From positions 62,001 to 126,000 of the forward strand of contig JBBDYQ010000009.1 in assembly GCA_040901445.1 (NCBI GenBank): a stretch of 64,000 bases of DNA. The letters run 5' to 3'. Below the pieces are notes generated by a model. That model did no database searches. It was not told the DNA's origin and saw nothing but the letters and a program-made list of their open reading frames with translations. The stretch's first letter is position 1. Each line of letters starts with the position of its first letter. Positions 29,743 through 40,149 of this stretch are shown here, piece by piece. The DNA is from Thermoleophilaceae bacterium (lineage in GTDB: Bacteria; Actinomycetota; Thermoleophilia; Solirubrobacterales; Thermoleophilaceae). The translations under genes and the position numbers were made by a program.

Positions 29743-30561
29743 ATGGCCACGCGAACCGACGAGTCAGCCCCCCGCGGGCGGCGCGCCCGGCAGAAGCCGG
29801 ACGTGCCCGTCGTGGAGCTCAAGGACGTCACGAAGGTCTACGGCGCCGGTGCGGTGGCGCTCGAGCGGGTATCGCTGCGGATAGGCCGCGGCGAGTTCGT
29901 CTTCCTCGTCGGGCCCACCGGCTGCGGCAAGTCCACGACGATGCGGCTGCTGCTCAAGGAGATGGAGCCCACGGAGGGCCAGATCTTCATCGCCGGGCGC
30001 AACCTCGGCCAGGTCCCGCGCAAGAAGGTGCCGTTCCTGCGCCGCAACATCGGCGTGGTGTTCCAGGACTACAAGCTGCTGCCCAACCGCACCGTGTACG
30101 CGAACGTGGCGTACTCGCTCGAGGTCATCGGCGAGAGCCGGCAGTCCATCCGGCGCAAGGTCCCGGACATCCTGCGCCTGGTCGGCCTCTCCACCAAGCT
30201 CCACAACTACCCGGACGAGCTGTCGGGCGGCGAGCAGCAGCGCGTGTCGATCGCGCGCGCGTTCGTCAACCACCCGCCGCTGCTGCTGTGCGACGAGCCC
30301 ACGGGCAACCTCGACCCCGAGACCTCCATCGGGATCATGCAGCTCATCTACCGCATCAACCGCACCGGCTCGACCGTGATCGTGGCCACCCACGACCACT
30401 CGATGGTGGACAAGATGCGCCGGCGCGTGGTGGAGATGCAGGAGGGCCGGGTCATCCGCGACCAGGTGTCGGGCCTCTACCGGCCGGACGAGTCCACGAG
30501 CGAGTTCGCGGTGCGCCTGCGCGGTGAGCTCGGCGTGGGTCCGGAGGGGCATCCGAATTGA
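29743..30561 (+). CDS. ftsE: Cell division ATP-binding protein FtsE
   Basis: A 272-residue ABC ATPase that, with FtsX, couples septum formation to activation of cell-wall hydrolases. Walker A is GPTGCGKST (residues 57-65), the signature LSGGEQQR is followed by [12 protein letters not shown], and the H-loop is VATHDHSM. The first 20 residues are a basic extension. ATG 29743 was chosen because the FtsE core starts soon after; in-frame codons upstream encode non-conserved sequence. The end overlaps the TTG start of ftsX. Confidence 0.95.
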
Positions 30562-36794: not shown

Positions 36795-37156
36795 GGGGAC
36801 GACAGGCTTCGACGTGGACGTTCCGTGAGGGCAGTTGCGAGTCGAGGTTCCGGGCGGCCTCGTAAAACACCCGGAAAAACCATAAGTGCGGATTCACACG
36901 AGTTCGCGCTCGCTGCCTAGCTAAACCTAGCCAGTGAGCTGTTGGCCCGCCCTCGGCCCGTGGGGCGGATCGCCGGCATCAGAAACGGGCTCCGCCCGCC
37001 GCGATCGCCCCGGTAGCGGCGGGGACATTTACGGGGCTGGCTCTTCGGAACCCTGCCGGCGCGGCAACCGAGGGGCGAGACACAGAGCGCCGGATACGCT
37101 CGTAGACGCTGCCTTTCACACGCCCGCGGACGTGGGTTCGATTCCCACCGTCTCCA
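36795..37156 (+). ncRNA. ssrA: Transfer-messenger RNA (tmRNA, 10Sa RNA)
   Basis: About 362 bases. The 5' GGGGACG pairs with CGTCTCC at 37149-37155 to form the acceptor stem, and the 5' region continues GACAGGCTTCGACG as in other tmRNAs. The T arm GTGGGTTCGATTCCCAC is intact near the 3' end. The tag frame starts at GCG 36888 and ends at TAG 36918-36920, encoding ADSHEFALAA, with the usual ALAA degradation signal. After discriminator A37156 the DNA reads CTA, not CCA, so the 3' CCA is presumably added after processing. It rescues stalled ribosomes together with SmpB. Confidence 0.95.
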
Positions 37157-37225
37157 CTATTTGATCGCAAGGCCACCGTCCTCGGCCCTTCCCCTGCTCC
37201 CGCGGCGCGGACTACGCTCTTCGCC

Positions 37226-37891
37226 GTGACCCGCGGAGCCGCCCCCAGACAGCAAACGCGCCGGGCTGAGCGCGAGTTCGTCGTCAGTTCACAGCGCGAG
37301 CGGCTGATCGACGCCATGGCCGAGGCGTGCGCGGAGAAGGGCTACCGGGCCACGAGCGTGGCCGATGTCGTGGCCGGGGCGCGCGTGTCGCGCGCCACCT
37401 TCTACGAGCTCTTCCACGACAAGGAGGACTGCTTTCTCGCGGCCTACGACACCATCCTCGCGCAGTTCCTCGGCAAGGTCATAGGCGCCTACCAGCAGGA
37501 CGCCACGTGGGCGCAGCGCATCCGCTTCGGGTTGGAGACCATCCTGAGGTTCGGAGCGTCGGAGCCGGCCTTCGCGCGCATGTGCCTCATCGAGGTGCTG
37601 GCCGCCGGGCCTGCCGCGGTCGAGCGCTACCAGGGTGGCGTGCGGGTGGTGGCGGCTCTTGTGGACGAGGGGCAGGACTTCGCGGAGGCCGGCAGGCGCC
37701 TGCCGCCCAGGGTGGGGCGCGCCGTGGTGGGCGGCGGGGTGGCGCTGGTACGCGACGAGCTCATCGCCGGTCGCGCCGAGCGGCTGCCGGAGCTGCTGCC
37801 GGACCTCCTCTACACAACGCTGGTCCCTTACCTCGGCCACGAGGGGGCGCTGCTCGAGATGCGGGCCGCGCGGGACGACCTGGCGCCATGA
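37226..37891 (+). CDS. TetR family regulator, first of a tandem pair
   Basis: A 221-residue regulator with a TetR helix-turn-helix (GYRATSVADVVAGARVSRAT, then FYELFHDKEDCFLAAYD) and an all-helical ligand domain. TACGCT (37213-37218) ends seven bases before the GTG start, so the transcript is probably leaderless. It ends in ATGA overlapping the second TetR gene, to which it is clearly related in the DNA-binding part and more weakly elsewhere. A tandem duplication is likely; heterodimers are possible. Ligand unknown. Confidence 0.85.
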   Translation: MTRGAAPRQQTRRAEREFVVSSQRERLIDAMAEACAEKGYRATSVADVVAGARVSRATFYELFHDKEDCFLAAYDTILAQFLGKVIGAYQQDATWAQRIRFGLETILRFGASEPAFARMCLIEVLAAGPAAVERYQGGVRVVAALVDEGQDFAEAGRRLPPRVGRAVVGGGVALVRDELIAGRAERLPELLPDLLYTTLVPYLGHEGALLEMRAARDDLAP

Positions 37892-38568
37892 CGCCGACCG
37901 GTGACGGGAACTTCGAGCGCCTTCCCAGCGGGCGCCACGGGCTGACGCGGGAGGCCGTGGAGCGCTCACAGCGCGAGCGCATGCTGCGCTCGATCCTCGC
38001 CGCTGTCTCGGACAAGGGCTACGGCGCCACCAGCGTGGCCGACGTCATCGCCGGCGCCGGCGTCTCGCGCACCACCTTCTACGAGTTCTGGAAGGACAAG
38101 GAGGGCTGCTTCCTCGCCGCCTACGACGCGGTGATCGAGGTGCTCCTGACACGAGTCGAGGCGGCTTACGCGGAGCCCGGGCCCTGGCCCGAGCGCGTGC
38201 GCGCCGGCCTGGCCGCCTTCCTCCACTGGCTCGTGACCTACCCTGACCTGGCGCGCGTGGCGGTCATCGAGGCCATGGCCGCCGGGCCGCGCGCCACCGA
38301 GCGCTACCGCGAGGCCGTACGCCGCTTCACCCCCTTCTTCGAGGAGGGCCGCCGCCAGGCGCCGCACGCGGACGAGCTGCCCGCCGGGGTGCCCGTCGTG
38401 GTGGTGGGCGGCATCGCGGCGATCGTCTTCGACGAGGTCGTGGCGGGCCGGACGGCCGAGCTCGGCGAGGTCCTGCCCGAGCTCGTGTACTCGGCGCTTG
38501 CCCCGTTCCTGGGGCACGATCAGGCGCTCGACGAGATGGATAAGCCCGCCCTCGCCGACGCGGGTTGA
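37888..38568 (+). CDS. TetR family regulator, second of a tandem pair
   Basis: A 226-residue paralogue of the preceding protein. Its helix-turn-helix reads GYGATSVADVIAGAGVSRTT followed by FYEFWKDKEGCFLAAYD. The ATG at 37888 lies in the overlap with the first gene. Its stop (38566-38568) falls inside a -35-like TTGACT, so the next promoter begins exactly where this gene ends. Two GCGTACGC octamers downstream are candidate binding sites for one or both TetR proteins, with the secreted protein at 38705 as the target. This is inference. Confidence 0.85.
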   Translation: MTPTGDGNFERLPSGRHGLTREAVERSQRERMLRSILAAVSDKGYGATSVADVIAGAGVSRTTFYEFWKDKEGCFLAAYDAVIEVLLTRVEAAYAEPGPWPERVRAGLAAFLHWLVTYPDLARVAVIEAMAAGPRATERYREAVRRFTPFFEEGRRQAPHADELPAGVPVVVVGGIAAIVFDEVVAGRTAELGEVLPELVYSALAPFLGHDQALDEMDKPALADAG

Positions 38569-38614
38569 CTTCCGCGTACGCATGTGTTCATATGTGCCCA
38601 GGGTTCGCGTACGC
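38565..38614 (+). promoter_or_regulatory. Promoter with two GCGTACGC palindromes before the secreted-protein gene
   Basis: TTGACT (38565-38570), 17 bases, then TCATAT (38588-38593) could form a promoter in an unusually AT-rich patch. The self-complementary octamer GCGTACGC occurs at 38574-38581, in the spacer, and again at 38607-38614, just beyond the expected start; the copies are 33 bases (about three helical turns) apart. This is a typical repression layout and the tandem TetR genes lie directly upstream. Confidence 0.5.
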
Positions 38615-38704
38615 CCGTGTACTGCGGGCGGGCGTGACGCCCCACGCAGGGTAGGGGCAACGAGGGTGGGCGGAGCTCGGCCCGCCAGGGGGAGGAATGC
38701 ACGA

Positions 38705-39583
38705 ATGAGTGCTCCAGCAAGTAGGCGTGCACGTCTGCGCGTCCTTTTCGCGGTCGCGTGCGTCGCCGTCGCGGCGCCGCTGGCGTTCGCCGGCTCGGCG
38801 AACGCGGTGCAGAGCGATCTGTACGACGTGTTCACGGCATGTCCCACGGACGATCCGCTGCTGAACGACCCGGTGTTCATGGCGCAGTCCGGCGGCTGTG
38901 TAGCGTCGGTCGCCAAGCCGGGCAGCACGTTCCGGATCGGCGAGAACCTGACGACCACGAGCGAGCCGTCGGTCTCGCAGTGGGCGTTCGGGTCCTTCGA
39001 CGGGGAGAGCCTGCCGGTCGTCCCCGGCAGCACCAGTGTCACGGCGGCGCCGCAGGAGGTCGAGGGCGGACTGCTCGGCCTGGTGCCGCCCGAGCAGCTG
39101 GCGCCGCTCATCGATCCACTGGATCCGGTGCTCGGCGTGCAGTCGCAGGTTCAGTCCGCCGGTGACGTGAGCGAGTGGCTGCTCGAGCCGCCCACGACGC
39201 GGCTGAAGATCAAGCTCATCAATCCGGTGCTCGGCGACAACTGCTACATCGGCTCGGATGACGACCCGATCGTCCTTCAGCACGAGGACTGGGTGACGGA
39301 GCAGGCCGGAATGATCTCGTTCTCGCCGGATCCGAACGGGCTGCCGGTGTTCGTGATCCACTCGCTGGACGGCGTGATCAGCAACAGCGCGTTCAGCGTC
39401 CCGGAGGCGAACGGCTGCGGTCCGCTCGGGCTCGGTCTGCTCGACCCGGTCATCAACAACCAGGTCGGGCTGCCCTCGCCGGCCGGCAGCAACGAGGCCA
39501 GGTTCCTCAACGACACGCACATCGTTGGCGCTGAGAGCGGAGCCGACATCCAGGCGGCGTTCGACGCGGCGCAGGAGGAGTAG
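38705..39583 (+). CDS. Secreted protein of unknown function
   Basis: A 292-residue exported protein. The signal peptide (residues 1-34) ends near GSANAVQSD. The mature part is mostly beta, with few charged runs and several Cys residues (FTACPTDDP, GGCVASV, GDNCYIG, NGCGPLG) that could form two disulfide bonds. NCYIGSDDDPIVL and FVIHSLDGVISNSAFSVP look like conserved beta strands. I do not recognise a family. It is followed by a strong terminator, so it is a single-gene unit, probably controlled by the upstream TetR pair. A surface or matrix role is possible. Confidence 0.72.
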   Translation: MSAPASRRARLRVLFAVACVAVAAPLAFAGSANAVQSDLYDVFTACPTDDPLLNDPVFMAQSGGCVASVAKPGSTFRIGENLTTTSEPSVSQWAFGSFDGESLPVVPGSTSVTAAPQEVEGGLLGLVPPEQLAPLIDPLDPVLGVQSQVQSAGDVSEWLLEPPTTRLKIKLINPVLGDNCYIGSDDDPIVLQHEDWVTEQAGMISFSPDPNGLPVFVIHSLDGVISNSAFSVPEANGCGPLGLGLLDPVINNQVGLPSPAGSNEARFLNDTHIVGAESGADIQAAFDAAQEE

Positions 39584-39607
39584 GAGCGAGACCAGTACGA
39601 GACACGG

Positions 39608-39638
39608 ATCGGGGGCCGGCGCACTGCCGGCCCCCGAT
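39608..39638 (+). terminator. Strong hairpin terminator
   Basis: A perfect 13-base-pair stem (ATCGGGGGCCGGC with GCCGGCCCCCGAT) and a 5-base loop lie 25 bases after the stop of the secreted-protein gene. Confidence 0.75.
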
Positions 39639-39666: not shown

Positions 39667-40149
39667 ATGGAATCACCCCGAGCTCTGACGTCCGCCATCG
39701 CGCTCGCCGCGATCCTCGCCCTGGCCGCCTGTGGCGGCGACGAGGAAGCGCAGCCCGCCGAGTCCGGCGCCGCCGGCGACCGCGGCACGCAAACCGCGGA
39801 GGATGGCCAGACCGGGGGCCGCGCCGGTTCCGGCGACTCGGCGGAGGACGGCGCCCGCAGCAGTTCGGGCGAGGAACAGCCGCCGGGCTCCCGCGACGAG
39901 CGGACGGAGGAGCCCGGCGAGGAGGGCTCCCGGCCGGCGGGGCCCGGGTCCCAGCGCGACGACGACTCCGAGCGTGAGTCGCCCTCGGGTCGTGACCGCC
40001 GTGGGTCGTCCGGGCGTGGGCAGGGACTCTTCGGCAGCGACGTCGAGGTGAAGCCGGTCGAGCCCGGCAGCAACCAGTGCGAGGTCGAGCTCGGAGGCAG
40101 CACCGCCACGGTCCCCTGCGACCAGGCCGAGAAGTTCTTCGGCGGCTGA
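39667..40149 (+). CDS. Disordered, acidic lipoprotein with a small Cys-pair tail
   Basis: A 160-residue protein. The N-terminus is a lipoprotein signal with lipobox LAAC. Residues 20-120 are low-complexity Gly, Glu, Ser, Arg and Asp, likely unstructured. The last 35 residues (VEVKPVEPGSNQCEVELGG and TVPCDQAEKFF) may form a small disulfide-linked module. I do not recognise it. ATG 39667 gives the lipobox at the right distance; a frame opening at 39637 would add ten residues before it. The long spacer could reach through the cell wall. Confidence 0.65.
   Translation: MESPRALTSAIALAAILALAACGGDEEAQPAESGAAGDRGTQTAEDGQTGGRAGSGDSAEDGARSSSGEEQPPGSRDERTEEPGEEGSRPAGPGSQRDDDSERESPSGRDRRGSSGRGQGLFGSDVEVKPVEPGSNQCEVELGGSTATVPCDQAEKFFGG

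What the first reader, a model, noticed from the sequence alone, without database searches (positions are those of the whole stretch)
37226..39583. Tandem TetR pair, twin GCGTACGC sites and a secreted protein of unknown function
Two related TetR genes overlap by four bases and are followed at once by a promoter with two identical palindromic octamers three helical turns apart, then one exported Cys-containing protein with a strong terminator. This looks like a self-contained regulated unit with a possible heterodimeric repressor.
Basis: inference. Interest (0 to 1): 0.5.

Follow-up and report, generated by a model that had tools for sequence, protein, structure and literature searches.

The report
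Paired TetR repressors beside lipid-linked protein
Two sister repressor genes sit directly in front of a gene for an exported protein of an unnamed family that, in other bacteria, lies beside lipid-import genes, so the unit may switch on a surface lipid-handling protein when its signal appears; no part of this has been tested at the bench.

Summary
The sequence features are real. Two TetR genes (37226-37891, 37888-38568; 49% identical) overlap by 4 bp. A 136-bp gap with two GCGTACGC octamers 33 bp apart follows, then a 292-aa exported protein (38705-39583) and a 13-bp hairpin without a T-run. Same-strand tandem pairs of this TetR subfamily are common in the order (33 pairs in 29 genomes among the loci I fetched). 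TetR1's type also stands beside a second TetR in other genera, in either gene order, and natural double-TetR fusions occur in a relative. This makes a heterodimer plausible, as in the double-TetR repressor Mce3R, but does not show it. The octamers are private to this genome: of 66 flanks of tandem pairs only the window's own has them. No other genome examined keeps the three-gene order. The exported protein belongs to an unnamed family (0 of 54 members hit Pfam or NCBIfam). In 36 of 72 named loci it lies beside MlaE/Mce-type lipid-import genes; in Xanthomonadaceae it follows a TonB receptor. The same TetR subfamily also flanks mce operons and, more often than expected, members of the exported family. 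Best reading: a TetR-pair-repressed unit for a secreted lipid-handling protein.

The parts
36795..37157 (+). ssrA (tmRNA) directly upstream; ends 68 bp before tetR1 (context, not part of the unit)
   Evidence: ARAGORN; Rfam RF00023 167 bits
37226..37891 (+). TetR1, 221 aa, GTG start; groups with the 'B' gene of tandem pairs in genus g24
   Evidence: tree support 97/80
37888..38568 (+). TetR2, 226 aa, ATGA overlap with TetR1; carries the N-terminal LPSGRHGLTRE motif seen across the subfamily
   Evidence: sequence shows motif
38565..38594 (+). candidate promoter TTGACT-N18-CATATG; -35 overlaps the TetR2 stop codon (read by eye; the scan found none)
   Evidence: inference
38574..38581 (.). octamer GCGTACGC, site 1, in the spacer of the candidate promoter
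38607..38614 (.). octamer GCGTACGC, site 2, just downstream of the candidate promoter; with site 1 part of a 15-nt direct repeat (38573-38587, 38606-38620)
38705..39583 (+). exported protein, 292 aa, N-terminal signal-like segment, Cys46/65/180/238 aligned with the family; unnamed family
39608..39638 (+). 13-bp GC-rich hairpin without T-run, candidate terminator

Best explanation
The 37226-39638 stretch is a small lipid- or steroid-responsive regulatory unit. TetR1 and TetR2 are made from one transcript as two related TetR subunits. They assemble as a dimer (heterodimer favoured over two homodimers) and sit on the two GCGTACGC repeats that bracket the -10 region of the downstream gene, keeping it off. 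A hydrophobic ligand, most likely a fatty-acid-, steroid- or terpenoid-type molecule, releases them. The exported protein is then made and acts outside the membrane as a carrier or capture protein for that class of molecule, feeding one of the genome's mce-type importers located elsewhere. Shown: gene anatomy, tandem-pair conservation, the family's neighbourhoods. Inferred: DNA binding, dimer type, ligand class, function of the exported protein.
For: Pair: 33 same-strand tandem pairs (gap 200 bp or less) of this TetR subfamily in 29 genomes among loci fetched for TetR, Sec or mce hits; 7 of 33 have the identical 4-bp overlap. TetR1 groups with the g24 'B' clade (97/80) and, with G118's gene, at 99/92. 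In G118 (L152) the same two types stand in the same order. DBD identity of TetR1/TetR2 is 65% and the C-terminal 60 residues 50%, against 35% for the middle, so HTH and dimer-helix regions stayed alike. Fusions: L225/L132 449 aa with two TetR_N stretches, 1.1 kb after a gene of the exported family; L157 454 aa. Octamer repeat at the right place. Exported family: MlaE + ABC ATPase + DUF6801 + Sec together in 36 of 72 named loci (Pfam on L208); directly after an mce operon in G088 (L288); after a TonB receptor in Xanthomonadaceae. The same TetR subfamily lies beside mce operons in 3 of 17 mce loci not chosen for TetR or Sec. TetR subfamily gene within 5 kb of 4 of 22 Sec loci, expected 0.35 (P 5e-4; 3 without the window, P 0.006). 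The genome has 36 MCE-domain matches. Model of the exported protein: pLDDT 80, mostly beta, weak barrel matches.
Against: Octamers occur at no other tandem pair and the paired-octamer pattern in relatives is no commoner than its reversed control. The three-gene order is unique to this genome among those examined. In g24 the pair sits between a UDP-sugar-dehydrogenase-like gene and a 683-aa conserved gene, not near lipid genes. TetR2's placement is weak (90/75, not starred). No mce gene in the 64-kb window. Fold matches of the exported protein are below the level that identifies a fold (best Z 7.4, Foldseek none at E 0.001 or below). The double-TetR model leaves the second ligand domain unresolved (pTM 0.48).
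Confidence: 0.45

Rival explanations
1. Two independent homodimeric TetRs from an ordinary tandem duplication; one represses the exported gene through the octamers, the other controls its own promoter or distant genes. No heterodimer.
For: Typical TetR-family regulators act as homodimers (stated in PMC11667970, passage read). The octamers are perfect palindromes, suited to a homodimer. The DNA-binding domains of the two are 65% identical, so either could bind. The subfamily is large and its genomes hold many copies.
Against: Tandem pairing with two distinct clades recurs in many genera, which independent regulators would not need; fusions into one chain occur.
Confidence: 0.35
2. The TetR pair does not regulate the exported gene at all; adjacency is the accident of insertion next to ssrA, and the octamers are a chance repeat or belong to another regulator.
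For: Gene order found nowhere else. ssrA 3' ends are common insertion points (recalled knowledge); tetR1 starts 68 bp after ssrA. The octamer repeat is only moderately rare (136 of 20,000 shuffles).
Against: The subfamily lies near Sec genes more often than expected; cases include the own-genome paralogue on C4 and, outside that count, Actinomadura fibrosa L254. The repeat overlaps the only plausible promoter. I did not test for integrase or att remnants.
Confidence: 0.2
3. The exported protein is an adhesion or envelope-structure protein; the mce neighbourhood in Streptomyces is a shared locus for another reason rather than lipid handling.
For: No enzyme or ligand-binding family is detected; paralogues occur in arrays such as four in a row in L253; the fold match is unspecific.
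Against: Two unrelated importer contexts, mce and TonB receptor, in different phyla.
Confidence: 0.3

Closest known systems
Mce3R (Mycobacterium tuberculosis double-TetR repressor of mce3; PMC11667970, PDB 9b7y)
   Same: Two TetR units act together; two operator sites near the target; lipid-import context; a fused double TetR of the present subfamily exists in a relative (L225) and hits 9b7y weakly.
   Different: Here the two units are separate overlapping genes; the sites are palindromic octamers 33 bp apart rather than two 25-bp asymmetric sites separated by 53 bp; the neighbour is one exported protein, not an mce operon.
Ordinary TetR repressor with adjacent target (genome-context rule of PMC3511530; passages read)
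   Same: TetR gene next to a target with an intergenic region under 200 bp.
   Different: That rule is for divergent neighbours; here two TetR genes are co-directional with the target.
Streptomyces mce locus with its divergent secreted genes (211 aa, DUF6801, Sec family, PucR-type regulator; e.g. L194-L212)
   Same: Member of the same exported family (about 26-33% identity).
   Different: No mce or DUF6801 gene in the window; the adjacent regulator is a TetR pair.

Membership tests
TetR family | TetR_N helix-turn-helix domain over the curated cut-off | tested here: met
   44.5 and 39.6 bits against 24
TetR family | all-helical ligand/dimerisation domain | not tested
   neither window TetR was folded; only a related double TetR was modelled
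Mce3R-type double TetR | two TetR units in one polypeptide | tested here: not met
   two separate ORFs in the window; met by relatives: L225 with two TetR_N stretches, L157 by reading its sequence
[quoted passage not shown]
   no complex prediction available; double-TetR model pTM 0.48
Mce3R-type double TetR | adjacent to an mce operon | tested here: not met
   tblastn of Mce-locus proteins against the window found none; relatives L300 and L301 have tandem TetRs beside mce
Unnamed exported family (Sec) | signal-like N-terminus, four aligned Cys, NP-LG--CYIG motif | tested here: met
   alignments A1, A3
OmpW/OmpA-like barrel or YceI/lipocalin-like lipid-binding barrel | fold | tested here: inconclusive
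   VIA-align Z 7.4 (8qxp, rmsd 4.6, 159 aligned), 6.6 (1wub, rmsd 4.4, 141 aligned), 4.3 (1aqb, rmsd 3.7, 117 aligned); Foldseek best E 4.7e-3

The most novel reading that the evidence does not exclude
Solirubrobacterales use obligate heterodimeric TetR pairs, the two-gene counterpart of Mce3R, as a general device for controlling surface lipid acquisition. The exported protein belongs to a cross-phylum family of extracellular lipid-capture proteins that serve mce importers in actinobacteria and TonB receptors in Xanthomonadaceae.
Probability: 0.2. Interest if true: 0.7.

Novelty: new variant of a known kind. Interest (0 to 1): 0.45.

Why it matters
My searches turned up no heterodimeric TetR repressor made of two genes; the solved case I found is the single-chain Mce3R. 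A lineage with dozens of two-gene pairs and a few natural fusions would make the evolution from homodimer to heterodimer to fusion directly testable. Separately, an unnamed exported family that recurs beside two different kinds of importer is a concrete candidate for an extracellular step of Mce-type lipid uptake.

Tried and rejected
Conserved operator: rejected. GCGTACGC is in 1 of 66 flanks (300 bp each side of 33 tandem pairs), the window's own; CGTACG is in 3 of 66. Octamer-N20-30-octamer occurs in 8 of 101 genomes including the own one, against 7 of 101 for the reversed control, counted from the table. The window's second octamer pair (47711/47730) is in coding sequence.

Conserved three-gene order: rejected. 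In the 20 Sec regions no TetR pair stands directly upstream, nor in the 72 named loci; the nearest are a single TetR two genes upstream in L254 and the double TetR downstream in L225.

mce link inside the window: no Mce, MlaE, DUF6801 or TonB-receptor match in the window; the single ABC-ATPase match at 29863 is to a gene I take to be FtsE-like.

Known family for the exported protein: none in Pfam or NCBIfam for any of 54 members, no PDB sequence relative at E 1 or below. Fold search inconclusive; OmpW/OmpA-type and YceI/lipocalin-type barrels are listed but below a trustworthy level.

Small partner genes upstream of Sec in different lineages (211 aa in Streptomyces, 189 aa in Lysobacter, 227 aa in Actinomadura) looked alike in place, but phmmer did not join them into one family.

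Island next to ssrA: I fetched 20 same-family smpB/ssrA regions and located ssrA in 13 of the 16 given to Rfam, but did not compare insertion points.

Literature: searches for tandem, paired or heterodimeric TetR gave nothing on point in their listings; one search returned zero papers for terms that should occur, so it may be unreliable. DUF6801: 0 papers. Searches gave nothing on point in their listings.

Rows dropped: the careful tree used 59 of the 89 rows (30 long-branch or near-duplicate rows dropped) plus 11 added rows. The quick tree joined TetR2 with the g24 'A' clade at 85; the careful tree did not keep that.

Full report
What is there. and one search give the anatomy: ssrA ends at 37157, TetR1 runs 37226-37891, TetR2 37888-38568, a 136-bp gap follows, the exported protein runs 38705-39583, and a 13-bp hairpin (39608-39638) closes the unit. 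The next gene, a lipoprotein-like ORF, starts near 39667. The promoter is my reading (TTGACT 38565-38570, N18, CATATG 38589-38594); the automatic scan reported none. Site 1 lies between the two boxes and site 2 starts 13 bp after the end of the second, places where a repressor would block initiation (inference).

Is the octamer repeat more than chance? One octamer is not special: 7 in 64 kb against 2.2 expected, five of them in coding DNA. Two in this gap is unusual but not extreme: 136 of 20,000 dinucleotide shuffles held any palindromic octamer twice. The two copies extend into a 15-nt direct repeat matching at 13 of 15 positions. The pattern octamer-N20-30-octamer occurs once in the genome. 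Over 101 genomes (the own one included) it is no commoner than its reversed control (8 against 7, counted).

The TetR pair in relatives. TetR2 homologues at E 1e-30 or better occur in 45 of 101 genomes, often next to each other. After fetching regions and calling genes with my own script, 97 subfamily genes (HMM score 150 or more) formed 33 tandem same-strand pairs in 29 genomes; 7 of the 33, the window included, have the same 4-bp overlap. These loci were fetched because they held TetR, Sec or mce hits, so 33 is not a rate. In the careful tree (70 rows) TetR1 joins the second gene ('B') of the g24 pairs at 97/80, and with G118's L152 gene at 99/92. TetR2 joins L152's second gene, L074's TetR and six others at 90/75, which is not firm. 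G118 (L152) has the two types in the window's order; G091 (L074) has a fragment at a contig edge that is TetR1-like by BLAST score only, followed by a TetR2-type gene. In g24 the B gene comes second, after a gene of its own clade. So B-type TetRs are found paired in different genera and in both orders. What lies beside the pair differs: a UDP-sugar-dehydrogenase-like gene and a 683-aa gene in g24, a methyltransferase-like gene a little further on in G118, a 422-aa gene of unknown kind in G091 (names judged by eye).

Fusions. L225/L132 (Solirubrobacterales MAG; G118 by matching contig length 38,341) encodes a 449-aa protein with two TetR_N stretches. It starts 1.1 kb after a gene of the exported family. 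L157 encodes a 454-aa fusion whose C-terminal half falls inside the clade of second genes of the g37 pairs. AlphaFold2 gave good confidence for the N-terminal half and the second helix-turn-helix of L225 but not for the second ligand domain (pLDDT 65, pTM 0.48), so it does not show how the halves pack. I rely on the published Mce3R work (PMC11667970: abstract, passages and sections 15 and 25 read). There a double TetR folds as one asymmetric unit and both HTHs are needed for binding. L225 hits Mce3R (9b7y) only weakly, E 9e-4, as it does many TetRs.

The exported protein. It is a member of a family with four aligned cysteines and an NP-LG--CYIG motif, found in 35 of 232 genomes of the order at E 1e-10 or better and in 72 named loci from one pattern scan. 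These are mostly Streptomyces, with Microtetraspora, Actinophytocola, Actinomadura, Rhodococcus/Prescottella, Patulibacter, Solirubrobacterales, and Lysobacter, Luteimonas and Pseudoxanthomonas. The scan used one peptide pattern, so the sample leans towards carriers of that motif. No Pfam or NCBIfam family matches any of 54 members. The AlphaFold2 model (54 sequences) has mean pLDDT 80.4 and pTM 0.74, mostly beta with terminal helices. Structural matches are middling: OmpW Z 7.4 (rmsd 4.6, 159 aligned), polyisoprenoid-binding protein 1wub Z 6.6 (rmsd 4.4, 141 aligned), retinol-binding protein Z 4.3 (rmsd 3.7, 117 aligned); Foldseek found nothing at E 0.001 or below. I do not claim a fold.

Neighbourhoods. 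In 36 of 72 named loci the family member shares its roughly 11-kb locus with MlaE-type permease, ABC ATPase and DUF6801 genes (Pfam assignment on L208). In ten Xanthomonadaceae loci the order is TonB receptor, 189-aa protein, Sec, two further proteins. In G088 (Patulibacter medicamentivorans by matching contig length 20,649) a Sec gene follows a run of Mce-type genes on contig C158 (MCE hits on that contig). The TetR subfamily also flanks mce operons: of 20 mce regions fetched, 5 have it. Two of those (L286, L287) were picked for it, and one of the 20 (L288) was picked for Sec, leaving 3 of 17. In L300 and L301 it is a tandem pair. Using the counts, a subfamily TetR lies within 5 kb of 4 of 22 Sec loci where 0.35 is expected (P 5e-4; 3 and P 0.006 without the window, with the observed number entered by hand from those tables). 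The window's genome holds 36 MCE-domain matches but no Mce gene was found in the window.

Reading. The most economical account is a TetR pair that represses the exported gene through the repeated octamers and is released by a hydrophobic ligand, the exported protein being an extracellular helper of lipid uptake. The regulatory link rests on position and on the modest but independent TetR-Sec association. The heterodimer rests on pairing, fusion and the Mce3R precedent. The lipid role rests on neighbourhoods. None has been tested directly, and each could fail alone.

Noticed in passing
window 38697-38708: Three-codon ORF ATG CAC GAA TGA whose stop overlaps the start codon of the exported gene; might couple translation or be chance.
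   Followed up: no
G000 contigs C2, C7, C10, C12, C14, C15: The window's genome has 36 MCE-domain matches, about six operons, while 14 of the 20 genomes searched have 6 or fewer; G088 has 88.
   Followed up: partly
L253 2604-6245; G118:C106; G197:C29: Members of the exported family occur in arrays, four in a row in Actinomadura atramentaria.
   Followed up: no
L144, L135, L075, L076; similar at L300 5007-5735: A 250-260-aa exported protein starting MRKYL/MRKHV lies beside single TetRs of the same subfamily; a similar-looking one lies beside an mce operon. Likeness judged by eye.
   Followed up: no
L159 2129-6347 (own genome C4): Cluster of TetR-like genes (one of this subfamily by BLAST, the others judged by eye) beside a second member of the exported family at a contig end.
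   Followed up: no
L274 5882-5960: c-di-GMP-I riboswitch near smpB/ssrA in one same-family genome.
   Followed up: no
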